Source: Clostridia bacterium (GTDB taxonomy: Bacteria > Bacillota > Peptococcia > DRI-13 > UBA5745). From it: DNA of 64,000 nucleotides. The notes below the pieces were generated by a model. The model made no database searches. It worked only from the letters and a program-made list of their open reading frames with translations, and was not told the origin of the DNA. Positions 15,226 to 61,117 of this stretch are shown piece after piece (the stretch's first letter is position 1; each line of letters opens with the position of its first letter). Where the stretch lies: contig JAHDMJ010000001.1 of assembly GCA_018436095.1 (NCBI GenBank), positions 1-64,000 on the forward strand. The letters run 5' to 3'. Position numbers and translations under genes: made by a program.

Positions 15226-15340
15226 CAGTATAGCCGAATAACGTTTGGTAATGTTGAACACTTTTTAGGTTTTCATCTTAGCATAAAAGCCCAGTGACTT
15301 GCTCCGCTCCCCGTCACCTTCAACCCTAAAGGAGCCAGCA

Positions 15341-15715
15341 GACAAAATTGCAGGTTTAAAGTGGGCCGTTTCTCTATGGCGGTGGCAAATTCCATGCAAT
15401 AGTGTTTCTCCTTACAATGGAAAGAGATGGACACATCACCTCTCCATTGTAAGGGGGTGGCTGACTTATTATAGGTCCCCCTCTGTGCAAAATTGCAAGT
15501 TTGTCTTCGTCTAGAGATCCTATCAGAGGAAATGTTAGGAAGCTTAAGCATTTTTTGCAGTTTGGTAGTGAATTCATTTCCGCCAGGGCACTAGATACAG
15601 TCAAGGTATAGGTTTCTACTTGTTTTTTGCGCCGCCATAACTCTAAGGGGTGTCTACAAACTTGCATTTTTGCTCAACTGGCGCCCTTACTGGATACAAA
15701 CCTGCATTTTTGCAC
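15341..15715. repeat. Inverted array of 41-bp-phased repeats, locus 1
   Basis: The 700-bp gap between the regulator and the tRNAs has no credible gene. It holds forward cores GACAAAATTGCAGGTTT (15341) and GTGCAAAATTGCAAGTTTGT (15485) and reverse cores ACAAACTTGCATTTTTGCTC (15656) and ACAAACCTGCATTTTTGCAC (15696), the last two 40 bp apart. A separate 12-bp inverted repeat CCTTACAATGGA / TCCATTGTAAGG (15410-15454) lies inside. The same repeat family occurs near 29.3, 42.7 and 60.9 kb. Confidence 0.75.
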
Positions 15716-15818
15716 AGAGAGGACAAAACCTGCTATCACGCCGGGGCGGGCAAACCTTCCCCATAGGCCGGCTTTGCTACTCCTTTTGTCCGCCCGTTCA
15801 TGCCCCTGCCTTGGCAAC

Positions 15819-16278: not shown

Positions 16279-17454
16279 ATGTCAAATATTTATTATGTAT
16301 CGGAAGGCAAATTATATACGGTTCAAGAGGGCAACGGCCGGCTGCTTACCAGTGAAGCAGCGGAAAAATACCGCCAGAATCTTAAAGAAATCGAGAAGCG
16401 CCAGGAATGGAAAACCAGCGGCGCCGGCGCCCGCTTTATGGGCATGGGTACGATGAGCCTGTCGGGTGCCCAATCCACCCCCGAGCATGCTTACGTCAAC
16501 GTAGAATCCCTGACGGCGGCAGGTCCGGAAAAATTAATCTATGCTTTATCCCTGGAGACCTCCGCCGGCCTGCACACCAAAAATCCTCTTAAGGAGGAAG
16601 CCGCCGAAGGGTTCATTCTCCGCCGCAATAATACCCGCATTCATCATATTGATTGCAATCCCCGGGATGGCGCCTTGGTGGCCTCCGTCAGCGACGGACC
16701 CAAAGAATGCCACATCGCCATTATTAAAGAGGAGCATTCGGAGTTTCATGTGATCACCGAAGGGGAAACGATGGATATTACCCCTTCTTATTCCCGGGCA
16801 AATCCCCAGGTTATTTACTACTCCAGTGCCGGTTATTATATAGACCCCCGCAAAAGCAAGACCTATTACGGCAGCTATTGCCTCAATCGGCTGGATTTAG
16901 AAAGCGGCAGCCTGACGGAGGTTATGGCCGATGAAAAATACGACTACATCCGGCCCAAAGAGACGGCGTCCGGCAAACTATACTGTATACGCCGGCCCAA
17001 AACCGCCCCTAAAGAAAGGCCATTTTTGCTGGATATCCTTTTGATTCCTTTTCGCCTGTTGAAAGCCATTTTTGGTTGGCTGAACTTTTTCAGCCGCCGC
17101 TATACGGGAGAGTCATTGGTCAAGGATAAGGAAGGCGGCAGTAATCCCGCCAAACATCAAATGAAAAGCGAAGAAGAGATTTTCATTGAAGGCAATCTGA
17201 TCAACGCCGAAAAAGCCTTGAAAGAGAATATCCGCCAAGGAGAAAAATACCCCGGCATCGCTCCTAAGGGTTGGGAATTGGTATTGATCGGTGAGAATGG
17301 CGATATTGAGATAATAAAAAAAGGCGTCTTGGATTACGCTTTCGACGGGGAGGATCTGCTGTTTTCTAATGGTAAGTATTTGATTCGCCGCCGGGGGCGG
17401 AAAGAAGAAGTGATTTGCCAGGCTAAAGTGGCCGCCAGCATTGTCATAGGTTGA
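16279..17454 (+). CDS. Unknown protein with propeller-like repeats and a hydrophobic segment
   Basis: I do not recognise this 391-residue protein. Short repeated patterns such as IYYVSEGKLYTV, IHHIDCNPRDGALVASVSDGP, CLNRLDLESGSLTEV and DYAFDGEDLLFSNGKYLI look like blades of a beta-propeller (TolB/WD-like). A hydrophobic stretch near residues 254-273 (LLDILLIPFRLLKAIFGWLNFF) may be an amphipathic or membrane helix interrupting the propeller. No signal peptide. ATG follows GGAG at a good distance and a sigma-A promoter is present. It stands alone and converges with the MFS gene. Confidence 0.7.
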   Translation: MSNIYYVSEGKLYTVQEGNGRLLTSEAAEKYRQNLKEIEKRQEWKTSGAGARFMGMGTMSLSGAQSTPEHAYVNVESLTAAGPEKLIYALSLETSAGLHTKNPLKEEAAEGFILRRNNTRIHHIDCNPRDGALVASVSDGPKECHIAIIKEEHSEFHVITEGETMDITPSYSRANPQVIYYSSAGYYIDPRKSKTYYGSYCLNRLDLESGSLTEVMADEKYDYIRPKETASGKLYCIRRPKTAPKERPFLLDILLIPFRLLKAIFGWLNFFSRRYTGESLVKDKEGGSNPAKHQMKSEEEIFIEGNLINAEKALKENIRQGEKYPGIAPKGWELVLIGENGDIEIIKKGVLDYAFDGEDLLFSNGKYLIRRRGRKEEVICQAKVAASIVIG

Positions 17455-27953: not shown

Positions 27954-29093
27954 CTAAAATTTCGTCTCCGGGAAACCGGCGTTTAGCTGCCGGATGCATT
28001 GGGGGTTTAGCTTAAATTGTTGAATGATATCATCGTGAAGCATCAAGGTATAATCGGAAACCTCTTTAAAACTGAGTCCCAGGCAGGCAATAAAAAGGCC
28101 ATTGAGGGACCAGTTTTGGATACCTTTAGGATCGGAGAAGGTTGCGGAAAGGGGCATATACCTTTTGCCCTTTATTTTGGTAAGCACCGCTTGAAAGTAA
28201 ACGAAAAGCAGGTAATGCCTATAGTATTTAAGACTTAGGTAAGAATTGGCCTGATGATAGCTTTTCAGGGAGGAAAAGAGTATTTTGCTGTATACTATCT
28301 CGTAAATCTTCCTTTTAATCTTGTGCCGGTCATAGCCCCGGGCAATACCTATGGTTCTAAGCAATTGCATTTCCGGTGTGGAAAAGCCCCGTCCCACAAC
28401 CCGGATACCTGTCGCCTCGAATTTTATAGCCGGCAGCCGGCGGAGGATCTTCCTCAGGCTAAGCTTGCGCCAATCATGCCGGGTTAAGAGATATTGCAAA
28501 TATTCCATAGAATAAGAGGAATAGGATTTTGACCTATAAAAATAGGACTTGTCTTCAACGGCGCAAAGCAAATCAAATTTTTCCTGCATGCTTTCTTCAT
28601 ATTGAAATGTGTATACCGGAAATTTCTCGAATATGGGTATGGTGTTCGTAATACTTTTAACCTTAAAGGGCTGAGAAATTACCTGATGCTCTCCATAAGT
28701 CAAAAAGCCAAAGGACAGGAAGTAAAGCAGGTACTTCGCCGCCGCTGTATCTGTCTGCTTGGTAAGCCAAAGAAACAGGAAAGAAAAAATAATCATCAGC
28801 AACTGATATTGAAAAAAGATTAAGAATACAAAATCGAGAATTTTGTAATTAAATCTTACGATAAGTTCCAGCTTTTTGGCGTCGTCCGTCAAATACTCCA
28901 AGAAAATAAAGGTTGTAATTAAAAGCAGAGCCAGGCTTTCCCTTATATTGAATATATTAAAATAGGCCGTCCCATAGGAAAAAAGGTATAAGAGAAACAT
29001 CCTCTGATTTTCTAAAAAGTTCGAGTAGGAAATAATCGCCACCGAGGCCATGATAAATATGATAAAAATATTATTGTTGAATAATTCTTCCAT
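27954..29093 (-). CDS. Membrane protein with degenerate GT51 (transglycosylase-like) domain
   Basis: A 379-residue protein. The first 135 residues contain about four hydrophobic segments. The rest resembles a diverged peptidoglycan glycosyltransferase (GT51) domain: LLCAVEDKSYF with Glu180 in the place of the catalytic EDxxF motif, GRGFSTPEMQLLRT (234-247) in the place of GxSTITQQLxR, and KIKRKIYEI (258-266) like the RKxxE motif, all with family-like spacing. The His of motif 1 and the second catalytic Glu are not obvious. It may be a pseudoenzyme or a novel branch. ATG follows GGAGATGT. No neighbours suggest a pathway. Confidence 0.55.
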   Translation of the reverse strand: MEELFNNNIFIIFIMASVAIISYSNFLENQRMFLLYLFSYGTAYFNIFNIRESLALLLITTFIFLEYLTDDAKKLELIVRFNYKILDFVFLIFFQYQLLMIIFSFLFLWLTKQTDTAAAKYLLYFLSFGFLTYGEHQVISQPFKVKSITNTIPIFEKFPVYTFQYEESMQEKFDLLCAVEDKSYFYRSKSYSSYSMEYLQYLLTRHDWRKLSLRKILRRLPAIKFEATGIRVVGRGFSTPEMQLLRTIGIARGYDRHKIKRKIYEIVYSKILFSSLKSYHQANSYLSLKYYRHYLLFVYFQAVLTKIKGKRYMPLSATFSDPKGIQNWSLNGLFIACLGLSFKEVSDYTLMLHDDIIQQFKLNPQCIRQLNAGFPETKF

Positions 29094-29223
29094 ACCACAT
29101 CTCCGAAGCCAGGTATTTGCAGTTCATTTTTTTCCGGCCCTGCTGATTCTAAAAGAATTATATCGCATTTTCCAAGAAAGTCCAATCAGGCTCTGGGACG
29201 TGCTTTAGAGTGCGGCCAATTTT

Positions 29224-29445
29224 GTGCAGTTTTTTCGTTTGTGTGTAGGTTCAGGTTTCCGCCTGTGCAGTTTTTTCGTTTGTGTGTAGATTGTACCGCT
29301 TGTCAGGCCAATTTTAGCTAATTCCAGTCCAAATCTGTGCAATTTTTTCGTTTGTGTATAGATTCGCTTTTTGCATTTTATACACAACCGCAAATTTTGC
29401 TCACGTCTCCGCCCCCAGTTGCACACAACCGAAAAAACTGCACAG
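29224..29445. repeat. Inverted array of 41-bp-phased repeats, locus 2
   Basis: The 490-bp gap 29094-29580 has no gene apart from a promoter at its right end. Forward cores GTGCAGTTTTTTCGTTTGTG start at 29224 and 29265 (41 bp apart), with a variant at 29337; reverse cores ACACAACCGCAAATTTTGCT (29382) and ACACAACCGAAAAAACTGCA (29423) are again 41 bp apart. The core differs from the other loci, but spacing and inverted layout are the same. Confidence 0.75.
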
Positions 29446-29580: not shown

Positions 29581-30453
29581 ATGAAAGGGTTTTTAAGTCA
29601 TTTTTCGGCAGCAGCCTATTGGAATATTCCATACATTGAAGCTGTACTCGGTTTTGCTCCTAATAAATCGAGTACTGTTGATTTTACTGTTTTCCGGCCT
29701 AGCGCGCGATCACAGATAAAAGGACGAAAAATTCACTTATGCCAATTCGCTTTGCCAGCCGGTGCGGTGATACCAAAAGGCGGCAAAATGGTTGCATCGC
29801 CGGAATTGTTGTTTCTTCAGCTGGCATCTGAATTAAGCATCCATCGGCTTATTCTGCTTGGCCTACAGCTTTGCTCACATCAACCGGGGAACCCCTCCGC
29901 GGCTATCACCACAAAAGAAAAGCTTAAGTCCTTCCTTTCGGAAGCCCCAGGCCATCACGGCCAGAAAAAAGCCTGGCGGGCATCAACATATATAGAAAAC
30001 GGTTCCGCATCCATCATGGAATCCATCGTTTATATGTCTCTGACGCTACCCTACTTATTAGGCGGCTATGGACTTAGGGGGGCCATTTTCAACTATGAAA
30101 TCAGGCTCCAAGGCGAAGCCGGCAAACGCTTACGGCAGAAACGTTGCTTTATAGACCTTTATTACAAAACGGCAAAATTAGCTATAGAGTATGAAAGCTT
30201 CTCTTTTCACAGCCGCCCATCAGAGCAGGGTAAAGACGCTATACGCTCCGCAATACTTGACAGACATGGGATTGAAATGATGCATTTAAGCACAATCCAG
30301 CTATACGATAAGATAGCTTTTGCAGATTTCATTTTCAATCTCTCCTCTCGCCTTGGCAAACGTATACAAATCCGAACGGAGAAATTTAATGAAATGAATG
30401 CTCTTCTCCGTGCTTTATTGCCAGTTGGGAATTCTGATATTGATCTCGCTTGA
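29581..30453 (+). CDS. DUF559/Vsr-like endonuclease-fold protein with AbiEi-like N-terminus
   Basis: A 290-residue protein. The N-terminus (FLSHFSAAAYWNIPYIE) resembles the start of AbiEi-type or related proteins. The C-terminal part (about 195-260) looks like a DUF559/Vsr nuclease domain: IDLYYKTAKLAIEYES, with Asp and Glu in the D...ExxG-like position, then a His (FHSRPSEQGKD) and IRSAILDRHGIEMMHL. Glycine after the Glu in DUF559 (EYDG) is replaced by Ser. No Shine-Dalgarno precedes the ATG; the promoter position indicates leaderless translation. AT content is higher than that of the neighbours, which hints at transfer. Function unknown. Confidence 0.6.
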   Translation: MKGFLSHFSAAAYWNIPYIEAVLGFAPNKSSTVDFTVFRPSARSQIKGRKIHLCQFALPAGAVIPKGGKMVASPELLFLQLASELSIHRLILLGLQLCSHQPGNPSAAITTKEKLKSFLSEAPGHHGQKKAWRASTYIENGSASIMESIVYMSLTLPYLLGGYGLRGAIFNYEIRLQGEAGKRLRQKRCFIDLYYKTAKLAIEYESFSFHSRPSEQGKDAIRSAILDRHGIEMMHLSTIQLYDKIAFADFIFNLSSRLGKRIQIRTEKFNEMNALLRALLPVGNSDIDLA

Positions 30454-34078: not shown

Positions 34079-34362
34079 TACTGATCCCGGATTAAATCCG
34101 TGGTATTTAACCGACGAACAACGTAGGTTCTGCGAACTCAATCTGCTATCCGAAGATACTAAGTACGCAGATGTTCTGCGAACTCAATCCGCTATCCTTA
34201 GATATTGGGGCGCAGATGTATCTGCGAACTCAATCCTACGGATATAATCCGCTATCCTTAGACATTGGGGCGCGGATGTATCTGCTATCCGAAGATACTA
34301 AGTACGCAGATGTTCTGCGGAAACAGACCGACAAATCGTTGGATTTTTATCCGGGATTAGTA
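34079..34362. repeat. 284-bp element with terminal inverted repeats and internal direct repeats
   Basis: The gap between sigH and rlmB has ends TACTGATCCCGGATTAAATCC (34079-34099) and, inverted, TACTAATCCCGGATAAAAATCC (34341-34362). Inside, two copies of a block containing GCTATCCGAAGATACTAAG...GCAGATGTTCTGCG and two of a block with CCGCTATCCTTAGA...TTGGGGCGC alternate. It begins two bases from the sigH ribosome binding site, so it forms the sigH leader if sigH is transcribed through it. It looks like a MITE or a long structured leader. Confidence 0.7.
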
Positions 34363-37040: not shown

Positions 37041-37193
37041 TCTGCTACTCAAAATATGGACAAATATCCATATCGAGAAATTTCCTGTTTCGTCCTGCCT
37101 GTTCTCGCATGGCTACCCATACTACTAACACTTTCTCTAACAGTCCACAGGCGTAAATTCCCGACTAGCCATCGGTACATTACAGTAGCTTTA
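37041..37193 (-). ncRNA. Candidate omega-RNA / right end of the TnpB element
   Basis: The 150 bases after the tnpB stop include sequence typical for the 3' end of IS605-type tnpB transcripts, from the guide scaffold (GGGAATTTACGCCTGTGGAC near 37146-37165 on the minus strand) to a 7-bp hairpin ATATGGA / TCCATAT (37054-37073) just before cysS. In active elements this region is the guide RNA. Its exact end is not determined here. Confidence 0.5.
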
Positions 37194-42493: not shown

Positions 42494-42590
42494 TATCCTG
42501 ATTTCCCGGAAAATTAAACAATGCAAGGATTAAATATTATCCCGGCAGTCAGCGGCAATTGGTTGGATTGTGCCCGCCCTTCTGAAAAAT

Positions 42591-42830
42591 GTGCAAAATT
42601 GCAGGTTTGTCACCATTCGCTTAGGCTAACTGAGCAAAATTGCAGGTTTGTAAGGACATTAAACGCATTTTTATACGAAATATGCAATTTTCAATGTGTT
42701 TCTCGCATGAAATTCCATTTTTCATTCATTCACAGGAGGAAAACGCCCCAAAAGCAGTAAACTGAGGTGACAAACTTGAAATTTTGCTCAGTTAGCCGCG
42801 GCAAACAACGACAAAGTTGAAATTTTGCAC
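42591..42830. repeat. Inverted array of 41-bp-phased repeats, locus 3
   Basis: Forward cores GTGCAAAATTGCAGGTTTGT (42591) and GAGCAAAATTGCAGGTTTGT (42632) are 41 bp apart; reverse cores ACAAACTTGAAATTTTGCTC (42770) and ACAAAGTTGAAATTTTGCAC (42811) are also 41 bp apart. The unit near 42611-42631, inverted, reads AGTTAGCCTAAGCGAATGGT, matching the unit at 60.97 kb. The gap 42401-43066 otherwise contains a terminator and the 18-bp tandem repeat, no gene. Confidence 0.8.
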
Positions 42831-42890
42831 ACCCGAGGTGCTGTGAACGGGGTGGGTTGATAATAAGCTGCATACAATCGAAAATTTTGA

Positions 42891-43020
42891 GCCGCAGGCG
42901 GTGCCAGAGCCGCAGGCGGTGCCAGAGCCGCAGGCGGTGCCAGAGCCGCAGGCGGTGCCAGAGCCGCAGGCGGTGCCAGAGCCGCAGGCGGTGCCAGAGC
43001 CGCAGGCGGTGCCAGAGCCG
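42891..43020. repeat. 18-bp tandem repeat (minisatellite)
   Basis: Seven identical copies of GCCGCAGGCGGTGCCAGA, 42891-43016, plus a partial copy. Ends 47 bases from the radA stop. The open frames across it (GTACGS or LRLWHR repeats) are artefacts of the repeat. Confidence 0.95.
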
Positions 43021-43066
43021 CCGCAGCAGCTCATTTCGCCCCTGAAATAGCCATGCCAATTTAACT

Positions 43067-60497: not shown

Positions 60498-60769
60498 AGC
60501 AAAATTTGCAGTTGCATGGGCTAACACTTAAAAATCGAAGTTGTGATCCGGCTGTCAGCGGGTTTGACCTGAAATCGGGTTTGACCTGAAATAAGGGGCC
60601 GAGTGCCCAAAAATCAAAGTTGTGTGATGGAATATAGGTCAGTTTTTAGTTCTTTGAGGAAAATATAGCTGCACAACTGAGGACACTGAAAAAATCGTGT
60701 AAGCTAATCTCGTCGTCTAAATCCGGAAAAATTTGAACGACTTTTCAGGTTCTTTATGTGGATGGTCTA

Positions 60770-61096
60770 TTTTGTGCAAAATTGCAGGTTTGTTCTCTAG
60801 CGGAAGGGGTCTTTGTGCAAAATTGCAAGTTTGTTTACATAACCATGGCGTTTTGTGCAAAATTGCAAGTTTGTAGAATACGTTTTGGCCTGAAAATATG
60901 ATATCAACCCATTAATGGGCCAAATTTCTTTCAAAGCAGGGGTTTAGGGGTATACAAACCTGCATTTTTGCTCAGTTAGCCTTTGCGAACCATAACAAAC
61001 CTGTATTTTTGCTCAGTTAGACTATGAGAACCATAACAAACTTGCATTTTTGCTCAGTTAGGCTATGAGAACCATAACAAACTTGCATTTTTGAGC
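60770..61096. repeat. Inverted array of 41-bp-phased repeats, locus 4 (best copy)
   Basis: The 797-bp gap 60321-61117 has no gene. Forward cores TTTGTGCAAAATTGCAAGTT start at 60771 (with G for A in the core), 60812 and 60852 (41, 40 bp apart). Reverse cores ACAAACTTGCATTTTTGCTC start at 60954, 60995, 61036 and 61077, exactly 41 bp apart; the sequences between them (near CTATGAGAACCATA) are almost identical. The two arms are separated by about 79 bases. Degraded related pieces lie at 60501, 60530 and 60609. Confidence 0.85.
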
Positions 61097-61117
61097 GGCC
61101 CCACCGGCTTTCCCTTT

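What the first reader, a model, noticed from the sequence alone, without database searches (positions are those of the whole stretch)
60770..61096. Mirror-image arrays of a short core at 41-bp steps, repeated at four loci
Seen directly: three forward cores (60771, 60812, 60852) face four reverse cores (60954, 60995, 61036, 61077); steps are 41 and 40, then exactly 41, 41, 41. The same layout, forward copies left and reverse copies right, occurs near 15.5, 29.3 and 42.7 kb, in the four largest gene-free gaps of the window. A step of 41 bp is about four helical turns, so all cores would face the same side of DNA, as expected for a phased protein-binding array. The inverted layout would also make a long hairpin in RNA or a cruciform in DNA. 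Cores are conserved in position more than in sequence, which argues for selection on spacing. I know of no described element with these properties; this is inference.
Basis: partly seen in the sequence, partly recalled or inferred. Interest (0 to 1): 0.8.

Follow-up and report, generated by a model that had tools for sequence, protein, structure and literature searches.

The report
Helically phased miniature mobile repeat family
The mirror-image arrays are copies of a repeat family scattered through the gaps between genes of this bacterium and one close relative, and their short motifs sit whole DNA-helix turns apart, so an unidentified protein probably grips them all from one side of the DNA, perhaps the enzyme that spreads them.

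Summary
The array at 60773-61097 has three forward and four reverse 21-bp cores at steps of 41, 40 | 41, 41, 41. It belongs to a genome-wide family: 438 core matches against 0 for the reversed pattern. A second species of the genus has 147; a generalised core was essentially absent from 196 other relatives. Elements are forward arm, loop, reverse arm. Three related core families (A, B, C) share the plan with different steps: 41; 41/62/73/93; and 62 bp. Distances between facing cores are quantised at 10.45 bp (95% 10.28-10.56; 114 of 128 pairs within 2 bp of the grid), and a hold-out sample agreed. That is the B-DNA repeat, not A-form RNA. Cores keep step even where adjacent spacers are unrelated. 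Elements disperse as units: loops are similar, flanks random, and 12 of 17 bracketed loci carry no core at the orthologous site. No target-site duplication and no transposase partner was found. Best reading: lineage-specific miniature mobile elements with multi-site arms, whose protein must synapse them on short, torsionally stiff DNA. Phasing and dispersal are shown; the protein is inferred.

The parts
60773..61097 (.). Family-A element, 325 bp: 3 forward cores, 79-nt loop, 4 reverse cores
   Evidence: outer boundaries taken at outermost cores because similarity between copies falls to random outside them
60773..60793 (+). core F1 (TGTGCAAAATTGCAGGTTTGT)
60814..60834 (+). core F2
60854..60874 (+). 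core F3 (inner)
60875..60953 (.). central loop of the '100' subfamily, with an inner palindrome TTTGGCC..GGCCAAA (60884-60924)
   Evidence: aligned with nine other loops, mean column identity 80%
60954..60974 (-). core R1 (inner)
60995..61015 (-). core R2
61036..61056 (-). core R3
61077..61097 (-). core R4 (outermost, starts CGCTCA, TGCTCA-like); ends about 20 bp from the uvrC stop
15484..15716 (.). Family-A element of the '173' subfamily, 1F + 2R (15656, 15696), inner distance 172
   Evidence: part of a longer repeat also found at several other loci
15338..15415 (+). further piece of the ~650-bp composite repeat that carries the 173-type element (half-core GCAGACAAAATTGCAGGTTTAAAGTGG)
29223..29444 (.). 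Family-B element: forward cores 29223, 29264, 29336; reverse cores 29382, 29423 (steps 41, 72, 41)
42590..42831 (.). Family-A element, 2F (42590, 42631) + 2R (42770, 42811), inner distance 139
60525..60624 (+). two degenerate family-C-like cores (60525, 60604) left of the main element
60679..60697 (+). end-like sequence of a second miniature element, M1 (GAGGACACTGAAAAAATCG)

Best explanation
The arrays are copies of a genus-specific miniature interspersed element that carries no gene. Each copy has two unlike arms of 1-4 iterated 21-bp protein-binding sites facing each other across a loop of roughly 50-160 bp. Shown: dispersal of the whole unit, inverted layout, spacing in whole B-DNA turns within and between arms. 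Inferred: one oligomeric DNA-binding protein sits on all cores on the same face and brings the two arms together. The DNA between them is shorter than or close to the persistence length, so arms can only be joined when they lie on the same face, and only in-phase copies can be spread or kept. The protein is most likely the recombinase or transposase that mobilises the elements in trans, or its now lost ancestor, because the sites lie in two unlike arms at the element's ends. Extra cores arose by tandem duplication of a 40/41-bp unit, which preserves the phase.
For: Family is genome-wide: 205 forward and 233 reverse matches, 0 for the reversed control. Steps of family A are 40 (42x), 41 (51x) and 42 (2x) of 103; family B 41, 62, 72-73, 93, 102, 123; family C 61-62. 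Facing-core distances have period 10.45 bp (R 0.80 all, 0.71 over 28 distinct classes; 0 of 3000 smeared nulls; bootstrap 10.28-10.56). In a 334-kb hold-out 15 of 19 pairs fell within 2 bp of the predicted grid, V-test u 3.98. Adjacent spacers with identity 0.30-0.42 still keep step 40/41. Most elements have one arm with 20-nt spacers ending GGCTAAC and one with 19-nt spacers. Dispersed as a unit: loop identity 0.67 against 0.43 shuffled and 0.43 for outside flanks. 12 of 17 bracketed loci have no core at the orthologous site of G004, some with 6-108 bp where G000 has 277-1359 bp. Precedent: spacing periodicity of transposase sites in CRISPR-associated transposons (PMC10201428) and the ~10.2-bp length periodicity of Paramecium internal eliminated sequences, read by its authors as loop formation in a transpososome-like complex (PMC3464196).
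Against: No target-site duplication: 123 elements show no excess of flanking direct repeats over shuffles. No transposase with these ends: the genome has one match each for rve, DDE_Tnp_1, Transposase_mut and Transposase_20, none for Y1_Tnp, and none of the loci is flanked by facing core arrays. No gene bracketed by clusters in the sampled third of the genome looks like a transposase. The protein and its binding have not been seen.
Confidence: 0.5

Rival explanations
1. Host-protein scaffold: the elements spread by some route, but the phased cores are now (or mainly) binding sites of a host architectural or regulatory protein that forms loops or condensed patches between genes.
For: Same phasing evidence. 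Spacing is kept although spacers diverge, as if selected after duplication. No recombinase partner and no TSD. REP/BIME repeats are described as binding sites for several proteins (PMC2817692 abstract).
Against: Most bracketed elements are absent at the orthologous site of a sister species about 86% identical in DNA, so no site-specific role is conserved. Flanking genes are more often convergent and less often divergent than in other gaps over 200 bp, as for neutral insertions avoiding promoters. Three core families coexist, which a single host protein would not need.
Confidence: 0.3
2. RNA or single-strand hairpin element: the arms pair in RNA or ssDNA and act as terminator, mRNA stabiliser or REPIN-like transposition intermediate.
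For: The 325-nt element folds better than shuffles (-102.2 against -76.6 kcal/mol, z -4.5); elements are enriched between convergent genes. Inner cores match within an element slightly better than between elements.
Against: Any inverted repeat folds well. Inner cores pair perfectly in only 1 of 44 A elements, mean 2.7 unpaired of 21. Loop covariation term is unfavourable and 1 of 13 pairs has a double change. Distances follow 10.45 bp, not the 11 bp of A-form RNA (R 0.31 at 11.0 over distinct classes). Steps in the two arms differ (40 and 41).
Confidence: 0.1
3. REPIN moved by a RAYT (Y1/HUH transposase).
For: High-copy, intergenic, inverted doublets without TSD; REPINs are such doublets linked to RAYTs (PMC3116915).
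Against: No Y1_Tnp match anywhere in the genome at E 0.001 while 5 of 14 control genomes ring. Cores are direct-repeat arrays, not small hairpins.
Confidence: 0.05
4. Passive tandem duplication and chance: the spacing merely reflects duplication of a 41-bp unit with no functional constraint.
For: Some neighbouring spacers are identical, so tandem duplication does occur.
Against: Does not explain other whole-turn steps (62, 73, 93, 102, 123) in families B and C, nor the quantised loop lengths in unrelated loops.
Confidence: 0.05

Closest known systems
[quoted passage not shown]
   Same: Short, gene-free, intergenic, high copy, inverted ends, presence/absence between sister species
   Different: No target-site duplication at the core-array elements, no autonomous partner found, ends built of several iterated cores in two unlike arms
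Tn7-like / CRISPR-associated transposon ends (arrays of TnsB sites)
   Same: Several direct copies of a ~20-bp site at each end, unlike left and right ends, terminal TG..CA, spacing with DNA-helix periodicity (PMC10201428)
   Different: Here the two ends are only tens of bp apart with no cargo; no TnsB-like rve protein found beyond one IS3-type transposase
Paramecium internal eliminated sequences
   Same: Length distribution quantised by the DNA helical repeat, read as loop formation in a transpososome-like complex (PMC3464196)
   Different: Ciliate, excised by a domesticated piggyBac transposase; no iterated sites described in the passages read here
REP/BIME/REPIN elements
   Same: Hundreds of intergenic copies, inverted doublets, lineage-specific
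   Different: Small palindromic hairpins tied to a RAYT transposase, which this genome lacks; no helical grid described in the sources read here
Foldback (FB/Galileo-type) transposons of eukaryotes
   Same: Inverted arms made of internal tandem sub-repeats around a loop, arm length variable between copies (PMC3573991, abstract only)
   Different: Eukaryotic; arms much longer (own knowledge)

Membership tests
MITE (DDE-transposon derivative) | short gene-free element with inverted ends, multiple dispersed copies | tested here: met
MITE (DDE-transposon derivative) | target-site duplication of fixed length | tested here: not met
   123 core-array elements, no excess over shuffles; only the separate M1 elements show 8-9 bp duplications in some copies
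MITE (DDE-transposon derivative) | autonomous relative with the same ends and a transposase | tested here: not met
   draft genome, about 42% of its bases read, so a collapsed multi-copy partner could be missed
MITE (DDE-transposon derivative) | presence/absence polymorphism at orthologous sites | tested here: met
   12 of 17 bracketed loci without cores in G004; exact insertion ends not defined
REPIN/RAYT | Y1 (HUH) transposase in the genome | tested here: not met
Tn7-like transposon ends | terminal 5'-TG..CA-3' with iterated transposase sites in two unlike arms | tested here: inconclusive
   layout fits; outermost core varies and no duplication marks the true end
Tn7-like transposon ends | TnsB/rve transposase | tested here: not met
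   one rve match, with an IS3-type ORF pair and no core array beside it
CRISPR array | one-directional repeats with non-repeated spacers of constant length, beside cas genes | tested here: not met
   repeats face each other in two arms; spacers recur between loci
Known structured RNA | match to an Rfam family | tested here: not met
   no Rfam match at the four loci at gathering cut-off

The most novel reading that the evidence does not exclude
A mobile DNA system with its own, unrecognised enzyme: one protein family with diverged specificities (cores A, B, C) moves gene-free elements without a target-site duplication by synapsing helically phased multi-site arms. The population of copies then records the torsional constraint on synapsis in a bacterium, as internal eliminated sequences do in Paramecium.
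Probability: 0.2. Interest if true: 0.85.

Novelty: new variant of a known kind. Interest (0 to 1): 0.62.

Why it matters
If right, genome sequence alone holds a natural helical-twist experiment: well over a hundred element copies whose site distances show which arm-to-arm phases a DNA-joining protein tolerates, at a period close to that of B-DNA. It points to an unidentified DNA-binding protein with hundreds of sites in a little-studied Clostridia lineage. It also gives a simple way to recognise similar elements elsewhere: search for repeats whose spacing, not sequence, is conserved.

Tried and rejected
Y1, rve, DDE_Tnp_1, Transposase_mut, Transposase_20 and Phage_integrase families searched for a partner: none bracketed by facing core arrays. 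An IS256-type gene at a contig start looked promising, but its end sequence differs from the cores and it is inserted in an A arm. Genes between clusters are ordinary. Flanking duplications at core arrays: none. Lengths of M1 elements worked out from the positions did not show a clear 10.45-bp phase, so the grid belongs to the cores and not to M1 ends. A first loop-identity measure was inflated by free end gaps and was replaced. Viral contigs, plasmids and phages: no match. Structure prediction was not used because no protein candidate emerged.

Full report
What was checked. The array described at 60.77-61.10 kb is present exactly as stated: forward 21-bp cores at 60773, 60814, 60854 and reverse cores at 60954, 60995, 61036, 61077. 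In the window 14 matches were found against 0.08 expected in shuffles. The loci near 15.5 and 42.7 kb carry the same core; the one near 29.3 kb carries a related core with the same plan.

Genome-wide family. The core GCAAAAWTGCARGTTTGT with up to 2 mismatches occurs 205 times forward and 233 times reverse in the 3.7-Mb genome, and never when the pattern is read backwards. Among 39 relatives only G004, of the same genus, has it in number (72+75); three other members of the genus (2 Mb, 80-85% complete) have none, and more distant genomes are at control level. A generalised core matched only G000 (110), G004 (3) and one isolated place among 198 genomes. No match in viral contigs, phages or plasmids.

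Anatomy. In 1.24 Mb of G000 and 1.18 Mb of G004, clusters consist of forward cores left and reverse cores right: 50 of 72 and 26 of 38 clusters are simple F..R, the rest being mostly neighbouring clusters in a row or one-sided ones. Three core families share the pattern TGNNCAAAAWTnnnRGTTkTrT: A (TGWGCAAAAWTGCARGTTTGT), C (TGCACAAAAATCGARGTTGTG) and B (for example TGTACAAAATTTACGGTTGTATG). In most A elements one arm has 20-nt spacers ending GGCTAAC (step 41) and the other 19-nt spacers (step 40). Loops fall into subfamilies with inner distances near 100, 110, 120, 140 and 173. In G004 most elements are single pairs whose loops contain AAATACAGCC-like units and differ in length by 10-11 bp.

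Spacing. Of 103 same-direction neighbours in family A, 95 are 40-42 bp apart; B uses 41, 62, 72-73, 93, 102, 123, and C 61-62. B and C steps have a best period of 10.40 bp (R 0.93, n 68). Facing-core distances have a best period of 10.45 bp: R 0.80 for 128 pairs and 0.71 for 28 distinct classes, neither reached in 3000 smeared nulls, with 114 of 128 pairs within 2 bp of the grid. Bootstrap gives 10.28-10.56; at 11.0 bp, the A-form value, R falls to 0.31. The period and phase from the first sample predicted a 334-kb hold-out: 15 of 19 pairs within 2 bp (7.3 expected), V-test u 3.98, and 3.18 for distinct classes. Caveats: classes within a family may share ancestry, the hold-out is from the same genome, and cores were found with consensus patterns.

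Constraint. Adjacent cores are 89% identical. Adjacent spacers range from identical to random-level similarity (12 of 29 at 0.42 or less), yet the step stays 40 or 41. This is what is expected if spacing and cores, but not spacers, are kept. Identical spacers show that tandem duplication extends arms.

Dispersal. For 12 elements of the 100-type, loops are 67% identical on average, shuffled loops 43%, and sequences just outside the outermost cores 43%. So the unit ends at or near the outermost cores. Comparing G000 with G004 (about 86% DNA identity in alignments), 17 clusters could be bracketed by syntenic sequence; in 12 the G004 interval holds no core, and in several it is only 6-108 bp where G000 has 277-1359 bp. 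At the uvrC locus G004 also lacks the array. Flanking genes are convergent more often and divergent less often than in other gaps over 200 bp. The 15.5-kb copy belongs to a ~650-bp composite found at several loci.

What is missing. Flanks of 123 core-array elements show no target-site duplication. A second miniature element, M1 (ends GAGGGCACTGAAAAAGTCG), does show 8-9 bp duplications in some copies (read by eye) and sometimes encloses A- or C-type cores. No transposase with core-array ends was found, and the genome is poor in recognised transposases. The assembly is a draft, so a collapsed multi-copy partner remains possible.

RNA or hairpin reading. The element folds well as RNA, as any inverted repeat does. 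Inner cores could pair perfectly in 1 of 44 A elements, and the loop alignment has no net covariation support. The 10.45-bp period fits B-DNA.

Mechanism. Shown: phased, facing, iterated cores; dispersal as a unit; turnover between species. Inferred: a single protein family occupying the cores on one face; joining of the two arms across short DNA; identity of that protein with the mobilising enzyme (about 0.5 overall). Precedents read here: transposase-site spacing periodicity in CRISPR-associated transposons (PMC10201428) and the ~10.2-bp length periodicity of Paramecium internal eliminated sequences, with its discussion of length-dependence experiments on bacterial transposons including IS50 (PMC3464196). 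The IS50 paper itself was not read.

Comparison. It behaves like a MITE population and is built like multi-site transposon ends, but fails or cannot pass the tests of a target-site duplication and a known transposase, and it fails the REPIN test because no Y1 transposase is present. It is therefore filed as a new variant of miniature interspersed mobile elements and not as a member of a named family.

Noticed in passing
window 42889-43021: 7.4 perfect copies of an 18-bp unit GAGCCGCAGGCGGTGCCA, ending about 45 bp from the radA-like gene and starting close to the 42.6-kb element
   Followed up: no
window 34127-34236: 46-bp tandem repeat, 2.4 copies; G004 has many copies of a similar-looking motif (GGATAGCAGATTGA)
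   Followed up: no
window 60679-60697; L045:7694, L068:957, L062:12397, L072:1462: Separate miniature element M1 with ends GAGGGCACTGAAAAAGTCG, 39+49 matches in G000 and 15+14 in G004; some copies carry 8-9 bp target-site duplications and some sit inside an A core
   Followed up: partly
L051:1-1218 (G000:C17 start): IS256-type transposase gene (Transposase_mut, E 2e-110) at a contig end, apparently inserted in the arm of an A element
   Followed up: partly
L050:3181-4150: Fragment that reads like a group II intron reverse transcriptase beside family-B cores
   Followed up: no
window 16279-17454, 27954-29093, 29581-30453: Three ORFs of 290-391 aa without any Pfam match, each next to an element-bearing gap
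   Followed up: no
window 37082-37151 and 1013-1125: RAGATH-18 RNA and TPP riboswitch (Rfam)
   Followed up: no
L075-L090 (G004 elements): Loops of single-pair elements hold runs of ~10-11 bp units (AAATACAGCC), which change loop length in whole turns
   Followed up: partly
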